Below, piece by piece: positions 18,401 through 62,744 of a stretch of DNA of 64,000 nucleotides. Each line of letters opens with the position of its first letter. Position 1 is the first letter of the stretch. The DNA is taken from contig NC_092574.1 in NCBI RefSeq assembly GCF_037975245.1, positions 22,757,713 to 22,821,712 of the forward strand. The letters run 5' to 3'. A program made the translations under genes and the position numbers. The notes beneath the pieces are model-generated. The model saw only the letters and a program-made list of their open reading frames with translations, ran no database searches and was not told the DNA's origin. The stretch is from Apostichopus japonicus. Taxonomy: Eukaryota > Echinodermata > Holothuroidea > Aspidochirotida > Stichopodidae.

Positions 18401-21400
18401 CACATTGTGTGTTATTAATTTATTCATGATTATTTTGTGTAATGTAAATGAGGGAGTTCACTCACCGACCCATCGGAAGCACTGATGATATGCTTGAAGG
18501 CCGGGTTGTAACGTGCCACTCGAACAGCTTCATTGTGTGTTAACACAATCTCAGCATGTCCATTAGCTCTGAGGATTCAAAACATCACAGACAAACATAA
18601 AAGTAGGGCTGGAACTTTACTGCAGCTAGACAGTAATGCTACAGTCAGCTAAGCTACAGTCAGTAAAGCTACAGTCAGTAAAGCTACAGTAAGTAAAGCT
18701 ACAGTCAGTTAAGCTACAGTCAGTTAAGCTACAGTCAGTAAAGCTACAGTCAGTTAAGCTACAGTCAGTTAAGCTACAGTCAGTAATGCTACAGTCAGTT
18801 AAGCTACAGTCAGTAAAGCTACAGTCAGTAAAGCTACAGTCAGTTAAGCTACAGTCAGTAATGCTACAGTCAGTTAAGCTACAGTCAGTTAAGCTACAGT
18901 CAGTAATGCTACAGTCAGTTAAGCTACAGTCAGTTAAGCTACAGTCAGTAATGCTACAGTAAGTAAAGCTACAGTCAGTTAAGCTACAGTCAGTAATGCT
19001 ACAGTCAGTTAAGCTACAGTCAGTAAAGCTACAGTCAGTAATGCTACAGTCAGTTAAGCTACAGTCAGTAAAGCTAAAGTCAGTAATGCTACAGTCAGTA
19101 AAGCTACAGTCAGTTAAGCTACAGTCAGTAAAGCTACAGTAAGTAAAGCTACAGTCAGTTAAGCTACAGTCAGTAATGCTACAGTCAGTTAAGCTACAGT
19201 CAGTAAAGCTACAGTCAGTAATGCAACAGTCAGTTAAGCTACAGTCAGTTAAGCTACAGTCAGTAATGCTACAGGCAGTTAAGCTACAGTCAGTAAAGCT
19301 ACAGTCAGTAATGCTACAGTCAGTAAAGCTACAGTCAGTTAAGCTACAGTCAGTAAAGCTACAGTAAGTAAAGCTACAGTCAGTTAAGCTACAGTCAGTA
19401 ATGCTACAGTCAGTTAAGCTACAGTCAGTAAAGCTACAGTCAGTAATGCTACAGTCAGTTAAGCTACAGTCAGTTAAGCTACAGTCAGTAATGCTACAGT
19501 CAGTTAAGCTACAGTCAGTTAAGCTACAGTCAGTAATGCTACAGTCAGTTAAGCTACAGTCAGTAAAGCTACAGTCAGTAAAGTTACAGTCAGTTAAGCT
19601 ACAGTCAGTAAAGCTACAGTCAGTAATGCTACAGTCAGTTAAGCTACAGTCAGTAATGCTACAGTCAGTAAAGCTACAGTCAGTAAAGCTACAGTCAGTT
19701 AAGCTACAGTCAGTAAAGCTACAGTCAGTAATGCTACAGTCAGTTAAGCTTCAGTCAGTAATGCTACAGTCAGTAAAGCTACAGTCAGTTAAGCTACAGT
19801 CAGTTAAGCTACAGTATTTATTCTGTTGTTAATAATGGCATGTTGTGCCTCTCAAAACCATTAGGCTTTAGGGATGCTTTACCATCGCTATGAACATTAT
19901 CTCTTCTTACAAATTAGCCAAAGAGGTTTTTAAGGACAATGTTATTAACCTAAGGGATTTCATACATGCAATAGGCAACCTAATACAAAATATACCAAAT
20001 AGGACTAATAGATTGATCTGGAACCAGAGATATTGGATTGGAGTAGGAGGCTAGTATAATGAATTTAGTGTTAAGATCTGTGAATATGAACATCTCAATA
20101 AGTGGCAATTAGCGAAACTTTGTATGAACGAGTGAGAACATAAAATGTGATATTGTAATCCAGTGGCTTGAGTCATTCAAAGGTTGTAAGTACGAAGAAA
20201 GTGTTACTCAGCAGTAACATTGACTAGTTTGTCATTTCCACTGATAACTACTTCGGATTGCCTGATTAACCATGCCGAAATTATCGAAAATTCACAAATG
20301 AATTTTGCTCAAACTTCTAACTGTTGATCTTGTCTCAATGACCAAAAAAATGTATCAGGGATAAAAACAGACAAAACCACATGTGAAAAAGTCTGGTATT
20401 GTTACCATATTATAAAGCGCATTGAGACCGTTCGTTTAATGCGCTATATAAATAAGTATTATTATTATATGTTAGGATAAAGAAATGATCCACTTCATAA
20501 TGTTAAAACAAATGACACACCCTACTGGCACTTATAAACAAAATGAAAGCCATTTAGTACATACTTAACAATCATGTCAATTTATGATTCTAATATTTTG
20601 TTGCTCCCACACACTTTTTTCATTAGTATTAATCACATTCAAATGACAAATGGAAAATGTTCAACATTGTTTTAGTTACTACTCCATTGTATTGAAGCGA
20701 ACCTTGTATATAGTCAAACTAATGAATTGCATTGGTGATGGGATTTTAGTATAGAATTTTAGTATCATCAAAAAAAGATAAAAGTTAACTAATCTAAGGC
20801 CATTTTAATCGATTTGGTTACTTACTTTGCTTTATGTGTTATCATGGCCATTAGGTCAGTGGCAATGACAAAGACTTTGGACATATTATTATAAAGGCTG
20901 GAGTGCAAATCCCCTCTGATTTTATGAGCTTTGGGACGGACGGTCAGCATGCAAACCTGGTCCTTGATGTCCCAGACCTGGCAGACCAAACAAGTTTCAT
21001 TATAGGTAAAGTAATCTATTACTAATTATTTTTAATTAAGTTAAAAAGAAAACCAGTAACATCATGTTATTATAAATCAAGTGATAGTATACCAACTTAA
21101 ATTATTGACTGTTGTCATGACGACATAGAATGACATTCTGTAATGTGCTATTTCCTTCAACACGAGTTTCTAAATTTTTTTAAATTTAGTTACGCATTTT
21201 AAAGATGTACCCATATGTTACTGCTTTAACGACTGTAAGATTGATGATTGACAGATACCATCCTTTTTTAAATGCAACAATTTGTATGTGAGTTTTATAT
21301 ATAAAAAATAAAAAAAATTTATGATCTACAGCCTTCTAAGTCTTTCTTGATACATAAACCATAAATATTAGAACTTTCATGACTGGTGAAGTTTCAATTT

Positions 21401-27400: not shown

Positions 27401-30400
27401 CATGTTAACAGGTAGGTTAGGTAGGTAGGTAATATAGGTAAGTAAGATAAAGAATTACATAAGATTCTACAAGTAGGTATAGAAGGTAGGTACAACAAAG
27501 AGGTAGGTAAGATGAAAAGGTAGGTAAGATAAAGATGTAGGTAAGATAAAAGGGTAGGTAAATAGGAAGGGTAAGATAAAGAATTACATAAGACTTAACA
27601 AGTAGGTCGATAGGAATGTAGGTAGGAACAACAAAGAGGTAGGTAAGATACAGATGTAGGTAAGATGGGTAGGTAAATAGGTAGGTAACATAGTTAAGAC
27701 AAAGAATTACATAAGATTAACATGTAGGTATGATAGGTAGGTGCAAGAAAAGAGGTAAGTAAAATGAAAAGGTAGGTAAGATACAGGTGTAGATAAGATA
27801 AAAGGGTAGGTAAATAGGTAGCTGAGATACTTAAGATAAAGAATAACATAAGATTTAACAAGTAGGTATGATAGGTAGGTACAATAAAGAGGTATAGGTA
27901 AGATAAAGAGGTAGGTAAGATACAGATGTAGGTAAGATAAAAGGGTAAGTAAATAGGTAGCTAAGATAGTTAAGATAAAGAATTACATATGACTTAACAA
28001 TACATATGATAGGTAGGTACATTAAAGAGGTGGTAAAATATAGGTAAGATAATGAATTACATAAGATTTAACAAGTAGGTATAGTAGGTAGGTACATCCA
28101 AGGGTAGGTAAGATAAGCAGGGTATGATTAAGAGGTAGGCAAAGTAAAGGGGCAGGTAAGTTACATGGGTTAATATACAGAAGACAGTTATAATGGGGGA
28201 GTATGGGTTCAAGAGGTTGGGTAATGACATTCAAAGAGTTAGTATTCTGCTAATAACAGTCTGGAACAACTCTGCAAGGTTTTTGGCACTTCAAATCGAA
28301 GATTAACTCTGTTTAGAAGATATTCCTGTTGACCTTTTTTCATTAGCTTGGCCTTAATACTTTCGATACATAGCCTTTGATAAGATAAAATAAGAGTGTA
28401 AACATTGAAAACTGCTTTCATCTTCCGCAACTGTGATATGTTCACCAGATGTCATTTAATATGAGTTTGGTATTTTTAAAATTAGACCAGCTGGTGATAA
28501 TAAAGTACAGCCTCTTAAAAAAAAAACATGGCAGTGTATCGATTTCCGATTGATTTCGATGAAGTCTAGGCGTGGATACAGACAGGAAATACCGCTACCC
28601 AAGTCACAAACGGTTGCATTCCTTCACTATGAAACTTACCAATAATCAAGCTTCAATGGTGTTGTCTCTAAACTGGTGATCTGACAATAAGGTTCGTATG
28701 TGGACAATTCATAGAATTGGATCTCTCGGTCCCTGTATGTATAACAGACAACATGAAAGTCTATGACAGTAGATAAAAACAGTTCATAGAATTGGATCTC
28801 TCTGTCCCTGTATGTATCACAGACAACATGAAAGTCTATGACAGTAGATAAAAACAATTCATAGAATTGGATCTCTCGGTCCCTGTATGTATCACAGACA
28901 ACATGCAAGTCTATGACAGTAGATAAAAACAGTTCATAGAATTGGATCTCTCTGTCCCTGTATGTATAACAGACAACATGAAAGTCTATGACAGTAGATA
29001 AAAACAACTCATAGAATTGGATCTCTCTGTCCCTGTATGTATAACAGACAACATGAAAGTCTATGACAGTAGATAAAAACAACTCATAGAATTGGATCTC
29101 TCTGTCCCTGCATGTATAACACACAACATGAAGTCTATGACAGTAGATAAAAACAACTCATAGAATTGGATCTCTCTGTCCCTGCATGTATAACAGACAA
29201 CATGAAGTCTATGACAGTAGATAAAAACAGTTCATAGAATTGGATCTCTTGGTCCCTGTATGTATAACAAACAACATGAAAGTCTATGACAGTAGATAAA
29301 AACAGTTCATAGAATTGGATCTCTCTGTCCCTGTATGTATATCAGACAACATGTGAGTCTATGACAGTAGATAAAAACAACTCATAGAATTGGATCTCTC
29401 TGTCCCTGCATGTATAACAAACAACATGAAAGTCTATGACAGTAGATAAAAACAATTCATAGAATTGGATCTCTCGGTCCCTGTATGTATAACAGACAAC
29501 ATGAAAGTCTATGACAGTAGATAAAAACAACTCATAGAATTGGATCTCTCGGTCCCTGTATGTATAACAGACAACATGCAAGTCTATGACAGTAGATAAA
29601 AACAGTTCATAGAATTGGATCTCTCTGTCCCTGCATGTATAACAGACAACATGAAAGTCTATGACAGCTGATCAAACAACTCATAGAATTGGATCTCTCT
29701 GTCCCTGTATGTATAACAGACAACATGCAAGTCTATGACAGCTGATCAAACAATTCATAGAATTGGATCTCTCGGTCCCTGCATGTATAACAAACAACAT
29801 GTGAGTCTATGACAGTAGATAAAAACAGTTCATAGAATTGGATCTCTCGGTCCCTGTATGTATAACAGACAACATGCAAGTCTATGACAGTAGATAAAAA
29901 CAATTCATAGAATTGGATCTCTCTGTCCCTGTATTACATACATACATACATACACACACACATACATACATTGAAGATATTTATATAGTGCTTTCCCCCT
30001 TGAAAAGGGGCAAAGTGCTTTACAAGAACACAATACAACAAACAACATGCAAGTTTATGACAGTAGATAAACTTGTCATGAAATATGTTTTGTAAAATAT
30101 CAAGTTATCATTTTTCAAGACTTCTGCTGCTCACTTCTACTGAAGACTAACAATATGTATCAGCTGTGACATAAAGAGGATGATGGTTAAAAATTGAATG
30201 TTAGTTTATACCTTCAGCATGATGTAAATGTCACTTCTACTTAAAAACTATTAATACTCAGGGATGGGTCCAGGGAGGGGGGCCAGGCAGGCCCTCTGCT
30301 TTGAAAAAAATGTTAGCACTAAAAGTTTGGTGAAAACATTTCTTGTCAAAACAAAGTACAGAGTGAAAAAAAAAGGTTCATGCTTTGTTGTTACTAATAT

Positions 30401-33400
30401 TATCTTATGTACCGGTATTCACTAATGATACCGCACCCCCCCCCCACCCCACCCTCCCATTTTCACTGAAATCTTGGATCCATCAATGACCTTCTCTTAA
30501 AAATCTCTCTTTGTACATATTCAAATACAGATGATGATTCCTTGCTACTGATAATTCCCATGGTAAAAATTTCACAGGTTTTGTTTGATCATCAAATACC
30601 AAGGTTCTCTTGGAGGCAATATTTTTCCAGACCAGTTGCAATAGCCTTGAGTTCACAAAAGCGAAGAAAGCTCATATTTATATTTATTAGTAAAGGACAT
30701 AAATGCATGTGACTTCATGCCGTCATTTTACACTGTGATGGCAATGACTACTTCTGATAAAATGAATGGAGAGGAATGACAAATATCTTGTGTTATAAGC
30801 ACACAATATCACTGACCCTGTCCCCAAAATAATTTTATTATACTGAGGCATGAGCACCAAGTCTGTCACCCATTTCGGTTTCTGACGAGTAGCATTTTGC
30901 TCTGCCTGGAAGATAAAAAAGGGAGAAAAGTGTAAATAAAAAATAAGAAGAACATACAAATCCTGTAACACTACCTAGCCAACCCCCTCCCCTTTTACCC
31001 CACTACGAAGCAATGCCCTGTCCGCTCCCCTTTATCTCAATACCTAGCAAACTCCTCTCCCCTCCCCTTTATCCCACTACCTAGCCAACCCCTTCCCACC
31101 CCTTTACCCCATTACCTAGCAACCCCCTCTCCTTTATCCCACTACCTAGCCACCCGCTCCCTCCCCTTTACCCCACTACCTAGCAACCCCCTCTCCTTTA
31201 TCCCACTACCTAGCCAACCCCCTCCCTCCCATTTACCCCACTACCTAGCAACCCCTCTCCTTCATCCCACTACCTAGCCAACCCCTCTCCCCTCCCATTT
31301 ATGCCAACCCTCACCAATTGTCTGACATAATACAACAGCATTGGCAAACAATATGTGCTACACCCCTTGCTGCCACCAGTCAGTCACAGGCCTACATCAG
31401 AAATGAATGCCCGCACATGTACAACATATTTAGCCTAAATTGACCTATGTGAATGGGGTCACTGAATATTCAAAAAAGGTTCACTTCAATCATACATGCC
31501 AATTATTTTTGCAAACAATTGTTGGACAAACTGTTGGAAAGGCTTTAGTTTAATATAGCTTCATCTACTATTGGGCTGGGAATACAAAATTGTTTGATTT
31601 ATCATAGGAAAAGAAACCCCTTGTCAACCCTCCAAATTGCCATATCTAATTATGACCATTTTACAATTCCAGCGGAGAGTCTACACATTTTCATAAAGTG
31701 TGTCATAATTAATAATTGGTACCATGCAGTAATAGCTACCTAGACTATACCTATTATTGTCTGCTGATGTGCATTTGGAAACATGCTAGAGCTTGTTACC
31801 AAAATTCTGAAATTATAGATGTTGATTCTGTAAAGGTCCAGGCCTCGAAATTCTGGCTATTTACTGGCGAAGTGCCAGAGGATTTAACCGTTTGCCAGTA
31901 GAAAAAAAGGGCAGTGATATGTTTCTCCCAGTAGACATTAAGAACAAACACTTGATGAGTTAGTTAACAATGGTCATTCAATGAATCGTTGAGATTTCCA
32001 TGCCTAACATAAGCCCGGTAGTACTGCTTATTTTTGTCAGGTTTGCTTATAGTAGTTGTACCAGAGGTCTTTGTCTTAAACTCCAGAAGTTACACAGTTG
32101 GATTTATATTCGGCATAACTTTTTTTCTAATAGGGTTGTGAATTAATGGAACCGTTTTGCCTGAGAAAGTTGTGCTTGCAAGTAATGTGAATGGACAAGT
32201 ACTTTCAGCATTGTAATCGGGTCTGATTTTTGGTGTCTTCAGGGTTTTTTCCTCTCCCGTAAGGTCCTTGATAGGGACTTGAGTGTCCCTCCTGATCCTT
32301 TTTTTTTCTTACTATCAGCAAGTATTGTTGGTCTGTTTCTCGTAAGCCTGTTTTAAAGACTGATCCGTGTTGTAATTCAGGAATATGCTAGTGGAAACTT
32401 GATTCTAAGTAAGTTCCTGAGTAAGCTGTTAAAATTGATAATTCTTGGTCTGTAAGTTACTGGGAAGCGACTCACCATTAAACTCTTGTATCTTTTCAGT
32501 TCCATTCCACCACTCCAAAATGCCACTGTACCATCCTAAAAACAGACAATTTATAAACAATTAATACACATTTGACATATATAGGCAAAAGAGAAAGGAA
32601 ACACATACAGTATGGTGACAGAGTGCTGTACAGTAACTAAGCAATGGTTTGAGAGTAAACAGCTTCTTATCAACCTCATAATGTTATCAATTTTGGGTCT
32701 GTGTTACATTACTATTTTATATTAGCTAAGAGTTATCAACATTGGTATTTTTTTTAAATGTCTGACAGAAATGAGATCTAAGGATTTATAAAATGTCATG
32801 TGTGAAATCTCACAAGTAAACACAGACATTTTTTTTTAACTTTGTGATCAAATGCATGTGTTCAAATGAACCATTCAAAACTTACCATATTTTTGATGTG
32901 TTGTAGCTAGGTTTAATAATAGCAATAGCAATTTAATAATTTTGAGTTACGCCACATGTAGGCTATATGAAGGTTGGCTATATTACACTATATATATGGT
33001 AGGCTATGAAAGAGCAAGTAGTTACAGTATGGGCATATCAAAAGAGCAGCAAGTCTGCATCCATACAAACAACACAGACGTGTAGTATGAGTACAACAGC
33101 TTGAGTACAAATAGTATGAGTATGAGTACCAGGATTGAAGCCAGAGTAGGAGTACTTAATTTTACAGTAGAGAGTATTAGACTTGTAGTGATTCCTAGTA
33201 CTAATACTTGACTTAGTAGCAGAGTTTCCTGTACTTGTACCCACCACAATGCACAGATTTATATTCGTAATCGTACTCGTTGCATCTGAAAATCATCTAT
33301 ACTACTTCTACTACAAAATTAGGTACTTGTAATCGTGCTTATAGCCTTGTACTCATACTGATACCAAGGGAGTTCTGCTTGTATTGGTATTCCTGCTGTA

Positions 33401-59666: not shown

Positions 59667-60419
59667 TTAGTCATGTCCTTCCTGAATGTTCAGCCCATGA
59701 GGTTGAATGGTACGAAGGCGTTGCATCCAGAGCCTCTCTCTGCTGATTCGTACTAGGTCAGGACGGCTACCTAAGGATTCAATCCCCTGTAGGGACATGT
59801 CGTTAATGGTATGGTTGGGAAGGTTAAAATGTTCTCCAACTGGGGTCTCAGTCTTCATGGTGTTGACTGTGGATCTGTGACCATAGAATCGCTTCTTGAG
59901 GGTGGTTTTGGTTTCGCCAACATACTGGATGCCGCAAACTCTACAAGAGATCAGATAGATGACATTGGTGATAGTGCAAGTGATGTGACCCTTAGTCTTG
60001 TGTGTGAGTTGCATGCTGTGGCTGGTGATGGAAGTGGATTCAACAATGTGGTGGCTGCAGACGATGCATCTCGAAGTACGATCACATTTGAAGGTACCAT
60101 GCTGAATGGGTGTGGGGTTAGAAGTTAGAGGTGGAACAGCAGCGCGTACAAGAAGGTCTCGTAGGTTGCGTGGTCGTCTGTAGGCGATGATGGGTTTTTC
60201 AGGGACGGCTCGTTGGAGTCTATCTGAAGTGAGGAGAATGTTGTGGTTGTTAGAGGTGATTTTCTGAAGGGGAGGAAGATTTGGGTGGAAAGTAACAACC
60301 AGGGGCAGCTTGTTGTCGCAATCTCGTCCCTTTTTGTCCTTCACTGCCAAAGTAGATGATCTGGAAAGGGAGCGGACTCTCTGAATGGCTTCACGCACCC
60401 TTCTGGCACTATGGCCCTT
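59667..60419 (-). CDS. PLE ORF, C-terminal part: GIY-YIG endonuclease
   Basis: About 250 codons, ending in TAA. The nuclease core shows VIYLISCRVCGIQYVGET, then KTTLKKRFYGHRSTVN and GEHFNLPNH, the PLE form of GIY-YIG with the Cys pair before YVGET. Upstream, FKCDRTSRCIVC holds further Cys. It continues the RT frame at 60422-62222 across a one-base frameshift, so as it stands it is a broken half. An independent ATG start is not evident. Confidence 0.9.
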   Translation of the reverse strand, partial: KGHSARRVREAIQRVRSLSRSSTLAVKDKKGRDCDNKLPLVVTFHPNLPPLQKITSNNHNILLTSDRLQRAVPEKPIIAYRRPRNLRDLLVRAAVPPLTSNPTPIQHGTFKCDRTSRCIVCSHHIVESTSITSHSMQLTHKTKGHITCTITNVIYLISCRVCGIQYVGETKTTLKKRFYGHRSTVNTMKTETPVGEHFNLPNHTINDMSLQGIESLGSRPDLVRISRERLWMQRLRTIQPHGLNIQEGHD

Positions 60420-60421
60420 CT

Positions 60422-62222
60422 GGCAATAAGGTTTTTTTCCAAAGCATCTGTATGGCGAATGAAAGAGGAATTGTTAGAGCAAATGCGACGAAGACGAAGT
60501 GCTTGACTGTAGGCAATTCCAGACTTGCAGTGACGGGGATGGCAGCTTGAAGAATGGAGATACTGGTGTGTGTCTGTGGGCTTGGTGTTTAAGTCTGTAG
60601 AGAGAGAACCGTGTTCCTTGCGAACAGTCACATCGAGAAAGTTAACCTGTTGGTGAGAGTAATCAGAGGTGAATTTGATGGTGCTGTGGAAAGAATTGAT
60701 GTGATTGATGAAGGTGAGCAGGCTATCCTCATCACTGGTCCAAATGAAGATGTCATCAATGTAGCGCCACCAGATTAGGGGACGGCAGGGAGCCGTACTG
60801 AGCATGCGTTCTTCAAGGCTAGACATAAACAGACATGCAAAGGAAGGAGCCATCCTGGTTCCCATGGCAGTCCCGTGTCTTTGAAGGTAATGCTTGTCCA
60901 TGAACGTGAAGTTGTTTTTGGTGAGAACCTGTTGCATGAGAGCTTTGATGTCAGAGATGGGTGGACAAGGGTGGACCTTCTTAGACAGGGCTGCACACGT
61001 GGCTGCGATACCTTCAGCATGAGGGATGTTAGTGTACAGAGAAGTGACGTCGAAAGTACCGATGATGGCTGTACTGGGGATTTGGTTTTTGATATCTTCA
61101 AGTTTCCTGAGGAAATCTGGAGTGTCATGGATATAAGAATTAATCTGAGGAACAAGAGGTTTGATGAAGTGGTCCACAAACAAGGATATCTTCTCGGTGG
61201 GGGACCCATTGCCCGAGATGATAGGCCTACCAGGGTTACCAGGCTTGTGAATTTTGGGCAGGAGATAAAACCTGGCTGCCTTACAGTCTGTGGGAGAAAG
61301 GAAAGAAACAGCCTTCTTAGAGATCTGGTTCCGCTGGTACATATCAGTGATGGTCTGTTTTATCTGCTGGGAGAAAATATCTGTGGGATCAGAATCAAGA
61401 AGAGTGTAAATATCACTGTTGGAGAGATGGCGCATGGCTTCCTTGATGTAATCCTGTCGATCCTGGATGACAACTGCAGAACCTTTGTCGGCTGGCTTGA
61501 TGATGATGTCACTGCGAGACATCAGTGAGGAGAGTGCTGTACGCTCATCTCTAGGAAGGTTGTCGTGTGTTCTGCGGAGAGGAGAGTTTGACTGGTTAGT
61601 CTCAGAGCTGACGACCTGTGTGTAGGCTTCTAAAACAGGGACTCTGTTCTTAGGAGGCATCCAAGAACTTTTCTTGCAGAAGGGTTCCCGTTCAGTTGGA
61701 GGATCATCTAGGAAAAACTCACGAAGGCGAATTCTGCGAAAGAAATGAGTAAGATCTTGACTCAGTTCCGCTTGGTCAAATGCTGGAGGAGTAGGACAGA
61801 AGTTGAGTCCTTTGGAGAGAAGCCTAAGGTCTGCACTGGTAAGAGTAGAAGAAGATAAGTTAACAACTGCAGTTGAGGATGGTGGTTCAGACTCAGGTGG
61901 AGTCTGGGGCCTTCTAAAACGGTTGCAAGCGGTACGTTTGCGTCTTTTCTGAAGGTCAGTCATTTTCTTATTTCTTCTTTCTGTGAGTTCAATGTTCTGC
62001 TGAGACAAACACAAGTTAATTTTGTTAGTGTACTGAGTCCATTCGTCATCGGTGCAGCACGACTGTAAATCAAGCTTCAGCCTCAGGATATCAACGTTGA
62101 GGCTATCTAAGGACAATTGGCAGTGTTTGGTGAGGATGTTGATGAGACGGATGGAGGTGCTGTGTAAGGCTCGGTTCCACTCTCTCTGGAGTCCTGGAGG
62201 GAGTGTCCCTAGTGCTGGTTGG
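60422..62222 (-). CDS. PLE ORF, N-terminal part: reverse transcriptase
   Basis: About 600 codons, open from the element's edge. RT motifs in order: FYLLPKIHKPGNPGRPIISG, FDVTSLYTNIPHAEG (catalytic Asp), GTAMGTRMAPSFACLFM, WWRYIDDIF (catalytic Asp pair) and QQVNFLDVTV. The N-terminal part is basic and helical. After about 60422 the frame runs only ~27 more codons to a stop at 60341, while similarity continues in the next frame. The likely lesion is a lost base in CCAGAAGG near 60420. Confidence 0.92.
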
Positions 62223-62744
62223 TAAAATTTATCGGCGCTAATGATGCTTAATTATCAACTGTACTGTATTGACATTATGTTTTTGTGAATACAGATTAAG
62301 TGCACACACTTATGCTTGATAGTCCTTGGAATCAAAGGTTTTGAATCAACAGCAGGTCGTTGGTGAGGTGCGGCCCAGTCAATTTTTCACTCCTTATATC
62401 TGGCCCATTCATTCAAAAAGGTTGCCCACCCCTGACTTATACCCTTGAAATGTTACCCTCGTGATACACTCTCGGCATGGTAGAGTGCAAAAGTGCTGAG
62501 GAGACAAGTAAGCAAGGAAGCAGTGTAAACTTTTTAATTACCACTACCACAGTGATATAACAAATGATGGTAAAGATATTAACAGAGATTTATCAACTTG
62601 ATCTGCTGTTAGACTTTATATTACACCCAGGGGAAAGAATAGTAGTGGAAATGAATTCATATGCCAGGTAAATCTGTAAAGATTCATTGCTACATGAAAG
62701 GTATATTGTAGTAAAAAACCAGTGTTTCTCCCATTGTCACTGCA

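What the first reader, a model, noticed from the sequence alone, without database searches (positions are those of the whole stretch)
28640..29935. A minisatellite built from a splice acceptor plus exon 10: repeatable, in-frame exon extension
Each 75-bp unit carries TACATACAG|GGAC and the first ~29 bases of WD40-gene exon 10. Units are a multiple of three, and the minus-strand frame stays open from exon 10 through the first five or so units (to about 29124). Exon 9 ends in phase 2, and every copied acceptor has the same phase, so using a distal acceptor would insert 25, 50, 75 or more residues (DREIQFYELFLSTVIDFHVV-type repeats) into a WD blade without a frameshift. This is either a purely intronic expansion that the spliceosome must ignore or a source of length variation in the protein.
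Basis: partly seen in the sequence, partly recalled or inferred. Interest (0 to 1): 0.78.

Follow-up and report, generated by a model that had tools for sequence, protein, structure and literature searches.

The report
Copied splice acceptors in an intron
In what looks like a sea cucumber genome, the end of an intron plus the start of the next exon has been copied 16 times in a row. It resembles the "mirage" repeats known from amphioxus genes, most likely leaves the protein unchanged, and offers a natural test of how cells choose among near-identical splice sites.

Summary
The array is real. On the minus strand, 16 tandem units (12 of 75 bp, 4 of 74 bp; window 28733-29928) each carry the last ~46 nt of an intron and the first 29 nt of a WD40-gene exon ("exon 10", 28640-28732). 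All 17 acceptors read AG|GGAC. Only the nearest five copies are in frame; farther ones shift frame or meet stops. Intron-derived bases vary without regard to codons, and splice-signal columns are not more conserved than others in four of five arrays tested. Similar arrays exist elsewhere in the genome: of 74 exon loci surveyed (61 clusters), six have an array that includes their own splice boundary, with units of 35, 53, 73, 31, 46 and 31 bp, none a multiple of three. The class is already described in amphioxus as "mirages", where RT-PCR is reported to suggest normal splicing (PMC3087553). Most likely this is a splice-boundary minisatellite that the spliceosome passes over, using the exon-proximal site. 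What I did not find in print is its presence and apparent frequency in an echinoderm (probably Apostichopus japonicus). No RNA could be examined.

The parts
28640..28732 (-). Authentic exon 10 of the WD40 gene (93 nt), acceptor at 28732/28733, donor GTAAG below 28640
   Evidence: in-frame GDREIQFYELSTYEPYCQITSLETTPLKLDY; the joined exon 9-10 peptide aligns to a Tup1 WD40 blade with no gap at the exon junction (weak, E 0.018)
28733..29928 (-). Array of 16 units (12 x 75 bp, 4 x 74 bp): 29 nt of exon-10 start plus ~46 nt of intron 3' end, each with an intact acceptor
28733..29107 (-). Proximal five units; use of any of their acceptors would keep the frame and add 25 residues per unit
29108..29255 (-). 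Two adjacent 74-bp units (one T lost from ACTTTCATG) that break the reading frame
29631..29778 (-). Two adjacent 74-bp units of a second type (TTGATCAGC instead of TTTTATCTA)
29935..30040 (.). TACA microsatellite and dispersed-repeat insertion that splits the most distal unit
   Evidence: matches to 29958-30040 on other contigs
30034..30071 (-). Partial unit beyond the insertion, followed by non-array intron: distal edge of the array
   Evidence: (query 100-137 matches array units at 89-92%)
30817..30905 (-). Exon 9, ending in phase 2 (...ACAGG|GTCAGT)

Best explanation
It is a splice-boundary minisatellite ("mirage"). A ~75-bp segment spanning the 3' end of the intron and the first 29 nt of exon 10 was tandemly duplicated (distal edge still visible), then expanded to 16 extra copies by slippage or unequal exchange. 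Every copy carries a pyrimidine run and an AG, so local acceptor strength does not single out the authentic copy. The spliceosome most likely uses the copy attached to the rest of exon 10 because the exon is defined across itself, from its donor and unique 3' part back to the nearest acceptor. The upstream copies are then removed with the intron. Shown: anatomy, copy number, intact acceptors, frame state, single locus found, and similar arrays elsewhere in the genome. Inferred: duplication mechanism, exon definition, absence of use.
For: Array anatomy and 17 intact acceptors. Pyrimidine content before the AG 0.47-0.59 in the 17 copies against 0.47-0.94 in the 12 other acceptors of the gene that I could place (13 looked for). 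Splice-core columns not less diverse than rotated columns: fractions 0.47 (window), 0.36 (L031), 0.63 (L025), 0.89 (L030), but 0.03 (L058). Intron-derived variants ignore codons. Only 5 of 16 copies in frame. Six of 74 surveyed exon loci have arrays including their own splice boundary, with unit lengths not divisible by 3: L025 (35 bp), L030 (53), L031 (73), L058 (31), L075 (46), L079 (31). Four of these exons were compared with solved structures and match conserved proteins up to the exon edge (PRP19, CCT-alpha, CCT-theta) or over the whole exon peptide (SKI8/WDR61 among many WD40 proteins); what the next exon joins to was not tested. Precedent: regular splicing reported for amphioxus globin and Adh3 genes (PMC3087553, section 16) and no aberrant mRNA for Adh and troponin C (PMC3902484 passages).
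Against: Three of 4 variants in the exon-derived part are synonymous (P 0.018-0.064), which could hint at coding use, although exchange with the real exon explains it too, and the L031 array shows only 2 of 5 synonymous. The donor core of L058 is unusually conserved (fraction 0.03), one of five arrays tested; the test is weak where diversity is low. If splice choice favoured the first acceptor made, the authentic site would lose.
Confidence: 0.86

Rival explanations
1. A used set of alternative acceptors: the five proximal copies give isoforms with 25, 50, 75, 100 or 125 extra residues in a WD blade, and array length varies between individuals.
For: Five copies open and in phase; all acceptors intact; resulting exons of 168-468 nt are ordinary sizes (lengths; the judgement is mine); the insert repeats the strand DREIQFYEL, so a blade could still close on either copy (inference).
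Against: Frame lost beyond five copies; intron-derived codons unconstrained; 0 of 6 other arrays has a unit divisible by three; amphioxus precedents report regular splicing.
Confidence: 0.1
2. Distal acceptors are used often and send transcripts to nonsense-mediated decay, so array length tunes the expression of the gene.
For: 11 of 16 distal copies would give frameshift or stop; no local difference in acceptor strength.
Against: No conservation of splice columns above the rest of the unit in this array; nothing seen that would favour distal over proximal sites.
Confidence: 0.06
3. Assembly artefact: the copy number is inflated.
For: Tandem arrays are error-prone in general.
Against: Units differ from one another (14 variable columns); two deletion types and an inserted repeat mark positions; the published assembly that fits is PacBio HiFi (PMC10344927, abstract and passages); six other loci show arrays of the same kind.
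Confidence: 0.02

Closest known systems
Amphioxus 'mirages' (globins BflGb6 and BflGb9 in PMC3087553; Adh3 and troponin C as cited there or in PMC3902484; PGBD5 repeats described in PMC3902484)
   Same: Minisatellite-like tandem copies spanning an exon-intron boundary; BflGb6 has this layout (intron 3' end plus exon 5' part); many copies keep splice signals.
   Different: Here an echinoderm; 16 extra copies against 6 and 3 units in the two BflGb6 haplotypes; 29 nt of exon; six further arrays found among 74 exon loci of the same genome, both donor and acceptor types.
Human internal tandem repeats at exon-intron boundaries (PMC2812944, abstract and passages)
   Same: Minisatellite expansion at a boundary.
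   Different: There the repeats are reported to form novel introns, with transcript support, in recent segmental duplicates, on average 30-bp units repeated 4 times; here no second copy of the gene was found and there is no transcript evidence.
Intron gain by tandem duplication (Zhuo 2007, Gao and Lynch 2009; seen only as citations)
   Same: Tandem duplication of splice-site DNA.
   Different: The unit has no good donor (five GTs, none GTRAG), so the unit alone does not supply a new intron.

Membership tests
Splice-boundary minisatellite ('mirage') | Tandem, minisatellite-like copies that span an exon-intron boundary | tested here: met
   16 units with 29 nt of exon and ~46 nt of intron
Splice-boundary minisatellite ('mirage') | Copies contain splice signals | tested here: met
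   AG|GGAC in 16 of 16 array copies; core diversity 0.000
Splice-boundary minisatellite ('mirage') | Concerted turnover of units | tested here: inconclusive
   variants at columns 5, 25, 26, 52, 61, 72 are shuffled among units, mean pairwise identity 0.937; only one haplotype available
Splice-boundary minisatellite ('mirage') | Length instability between alleles | not testable with these tools
   single assembly
Splice-boundary minisatellite ('mirage') | Regular splicing despite the copies | not testable with these tools
   no RNA data
In-frame alternative tandem acceptors | All copies keep reading frame | tested here: not met
   only acceptors 28807-29107 in frame and open; 4 of 16 units are 74 bp; one unit has TGA
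In-frame alternative tandem acceptors | Added sequence under coding constraint | tested here: not met
   intron-derived part 3 of 11 variants synonymous, 2 stops (2 of 8 and 1 stop without the deletion-bearing type); the exon-derived part is 3 of 4 synonymous, which points the other way but is few
Recursive splice sites | AG|GT zero-length exon | tested here: not met
   all are AG|GG
Intron gain by tandem duplication | Unit supplies both a donor and an acceptor | tested here: not met
   five GTs in the consensus unit (GTTTTT, GTCATA, GTTGTC, GTCTGT, GTTATA), none GTRAG

The most novel reading that the evidence does not exclude
In this sea cucumber, splice-boundary arrays are a general feature of genes (6 of 74 surveyed exon loci, plus this one), giving single introns from about 11 to about 60 extra near-identical donors or 16-20 extra acceptors. 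Array length differs between individuals, and a small, length-dependent share of transcripts uses array copies, so that in this WD40 gene the five in-frame acceptors add 25-residue steps to the protein.
Probability: 0.12. Interest if true: 0.78.

Novelty: new member of a known kind. Interest (0 to 1): 0.5.

Why it matters
Experiments on splice-site choice (as I recall them) use artificial duplications of one splice site. Here a genome appears to have done this repeatedly, for both donors and acceptors, in conserved genes, with up to about 75 units in one array (62 of them with a GTRAG donor). Public RNA reads could settle whether the exon-proximal copy always wins, as exon definition predicts, or whether order of synthesis matters. 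If normal splicing holds, it shows how tolerant the spliceosome is to decoys; if not, it is a source of variable isoforms. It also warns that gene models in such genomes may be wrong at these boundaries.

Tried and rejected
Recursive splicing: rejected, sites are AG|GG. Cryptic exons within units: rejected for lack of a donor in the consensus unit. Selection for open frame: the five-unit open stretch is what one would see about a third of the time given three disruptive events placed at random.

Selection on duplicated splice sites: tested by rotating the splice core around the unit in five arrays; only L058 stood out (0.03), which I treat as one low value in five tests. L075 and L079 were not in that test because they were found later. 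In L079 the donor has changed: none of the array copies has TGGTAAGTA and 35 read GTAGTAGCAG.

Synonymous bias of the exon-derived part: 3 of 4 in the window (P 0.018-0.064 by transition weight) but 2 of 5 in the L031 array, so no claim is made. In one search, three of the 11 intron-derived variants (columns 33, 37, 38) belong to units with an upstream deletion, so their codon reading is formal. In L075 I saw by eye that the unit differs from the real exon by both synonymous and conservative changes; not counted.

Retrocopy of the spliced mRNA as a fossil record of splicing: none found; the joined exon 9-10 peptide matches only the two exons (4 candidates scored). Paralogue: a 72-residue exon downstream of exon 10 matched only itself (5 candidates scored). 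Solved structures gave only generic WD40 matches for this gene.

Targeting of boundaries: array coverage away from exons is 7.6%, 6.1% and 14.2% in the three surveys, and 7.6% of the whole window; 6 of at most 148 boundaries lie in arrays (4%, 95% interval 1.5-8.6%), so there is no sign that arrays seek boundaries. Donor against acceptor bias (5 to 1) is not significant (P 0.22).

Limits of the survey. The 74 loci are the best-scoring matches of three families, not a random sample, and fall into 61 clusters at 30 kb, so several come from one gene. The kinase set includes long single-exon matches and repeated families; internal repeats in L063, L066-L069 and L071 were set aside without close study. 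Array-boundary overlap was judged by eye. The filter (array within 80 nt of the match) misses exons that extend further (it missed L025, found), so 6 of 74 is likely a lower bound. L030 shares only about 4 exon bases with its unit and is the weakest of the six. L012, L029 and L083 have arrays near but not including the boundary; L024, L028, L035 and L041 have repeats that I judged not to include one; L070 (10 bp x 3) was not examined.

Full report
What is there. Each unit holds the first 29 nt of the exon and about 46 nt of the intron end. Twelve units are 75 bp and four are 74 bp. TRF scores the array 2112 with 93% matches. All 16 extra acceptors and the authentic one read AG|GGAC. A DNA search of the whole assembly with one unit finds only this array (17 matches, all here, a capped first look), and the joined exon 9-10 peptide matches only these two exons.

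Edges and origin. The array ends distally with a partial unit (30034-30071), separated from the last full unit by a TACA run and a dispersed repeat; pieces of 29958-30040 match other contigs at 76-90%, and the partial unit matches array units at 89-92%. Beyond it the printed intron is not repeated. The simplest history is one tandem duplication of a segment straddling the boundary, later expansion, and an insertion into the most distal unit. This history is inferred.

Reading frame. Exon 9 ends in phase 2. Using acceptor 28807, 28882, 28957, 29032 or 29107 adds 25 residues per unit (DREIQFYELFLSTVIDFHVVCYTYR type) without a stop. All 11 acceptors beyond 29107 fail, because two adjacent 74-bp units shift the frame and other units carry stops. 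There are three disruptive events in the array (two deletion types, one TGA); the chance that all miss the nearest five units is roughly 0.32, so the open stretch needs no selection.

Tests for use of the copies. First, acceptor strength: the pyrimidine fraction before the AG is 0.47-0.59 for the 17 copies, against 0.47-0.94 for 12 other acceptors of the gene that I placed by hand; nothing local singles out the authentic copy. Second, variation: mean pairwise identity of the 16 units is 0.937, and diversity is the same in the exon-derived and intron-derived parts (0.058 and 0.057). Read as codons, the intron-derived part has 3 of 11 variants synonymous and 2 stops (2 of 8 and 1 stop if the three variants of a deletion-bearing type are left out); the exon-derived part has 3 of 4 synonymous. 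The latter is suggestive (P 0.018-0.064) but is not seen in a second acceptor array (2 of 5), and exchange with the real exon would explain it. Third, the splice core is not more conserved than other stretches of the unit in four of five arrays tested; the fifth, L058, has a fraction of 0.03. On balance this does not point to use of the copies.

The same thing elsewhere in the genome. To learn whether this is a freak, I took exon loci from three families in the same genome without regard to repeats: the best 30 of 150 listed WD40 matches, the best 30 of 134 kinase matches and the best 14 of 57 chaperonin matches; they form 61 clusters. Six of 74 have an array that includes their own splice boundary: 3 of 30, 1 of 30 and 2 of 14. 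L031, an exon that I read as SKI8/WDR61 (all 32 residues align to it, among 331 matched sequences), has 20 extra acceptors in 73-bp units (two of 71) carrying 26 nt of exon, the same layout as in the window. L025, a WD40 exon (I recall it as DAW1), has a 35-bp donor array whose units contain GCTGATA|GTAAGT; with its continuation in L086 it has about 75 units, 62 of them with GTRAG. L030, PRP19 (aligned over 77 of 77 residues), has a 53-bp donor array that shares only about 4 exon bases; 13 of 14 units have GTRAG. L058, a protein kinase exon, has a 31-bp donor array, 14 of 15 units with GTRAG. L075, CCT-theta (42 of 42 residues), has a 46-bp donor array with about 30 nt of exon, 11 of 12 units with GT. 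L079, CCT-alpha, has a 31-bp donor array of 38 copies that shares about 9 exon bases; 35 copies read GTAGTAGCAG and none keeps the authentic TGGTAAGTA. None of these unit lengths is a multiple of three. In each case the authentic site is the one nearest the unique exon.

Rate. Tandem arrays cover 6-14% of the DNA around these exons, while 6 of at most 148 boundaries (4%) lie in arrays. Arrays therefore do not appear to seek boundaries; the genome is rich in them and boundaries are hit at or below the background rate. If the survey is representative, and with about 8 exons per gene (a value of 8.06 in the gene table of PMC10344927 that I take to be this), many genes would carry one. This extrapolation is rough.

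Which animal. The mitochondrial contig reads correctly only if AAA is asparagine (STNHKDIG, GFGNWLIP; table 9 or 14), and a reading that I recognise as nad4L follows cox1; I recall this as an echinoderm trait. Size and contig number (671,581,487 bases, 35 contigs) fit the Apostichopus japonicus assembly of 671.6 Mb in 34 scaffolds and 23 chromosomes (PMC10344927, abstract and passages) plus a mitochondrial contig. The name is an inference. The gene is, from memory, of the 'WD repeat-containing protein on Y chromosome'/WDR64 type; the tools show only WD40.

Mechanism. I think exon definition is the likeliest reason the copies are harmless: U1 at the exon's donor and factors on its unique part pair with the closest acceptor, and for donor arrays the closest donor to the exon's acceptor wins. 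That the authentic site is exon-proximal in all seven arrays agrees with this, but it is partly built in, because the authentic site is recognised by its coding exon. In amphioxus, RT-PCR of such genes is reported to suggest regular splicing (PMC3087553, section 16 read; PMC3902484 passages; the original Adh3 paper was not held).

Novelty. The class is known. [quoted passage not shown] I saw no report for sea cucumbers or other echinoderms in the listings (open-licence papers only; 20 of 38 listed, 15 of 25, 10 of 149). The new points are the phylum, the copy numbers, and the apparent frequency in one genome. The decisive test is a k-mer count in existing RNA reads.

Noticed in passing
L025 1699-3111 and L086 1-1302 (G000:C10): About 75 copies of a 35-bp unit containing an exon end and a donor (62 with GTRAG), immediately after a conserved WD40 exon: a very large donor array.
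   Followed up: partly
L031, and L087 1-153 (G000:C14): Acceptor array of 73-bp units in a SKI8/WDR61-like gene, with the same layout as the window.
   Followed up: partly
L079 315-1531 (G000:C17): Donor array of 31-bp units after a CCT-alpha exon in which the copies read GTAGTA where the authentic donor reads GTAAGTA (35 copies with GTAGTAGCAG).
   Followed up: partly
window 18631-19815: Intronic array with 15/30/45-bp periods whose minus strand is open for 374 codons (SLTDCSITDCSFTDC type); probably open only because the period is a multiple of three.
   Followed up: no
window 59667-62251 (-): Two adjacent open frames that look, from memory, like a Penelope-type retroelement (reverse transcriptase and a GIY-YIG-like end).
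   Followed up: no
window 31059-31301: 64-bp C-rich array (3.7 copies) in the intron just upstream of exon 9.
   Followed up: no
G000:C29 14745-31219 (-): A COX1 copy in collinear pieces and a second partial one about 16.1 kb away, close to the length of the mitochondrial contig C35 (16,099): C29 may be a mitochondrial concatemer or insertion.
   Followed up: no
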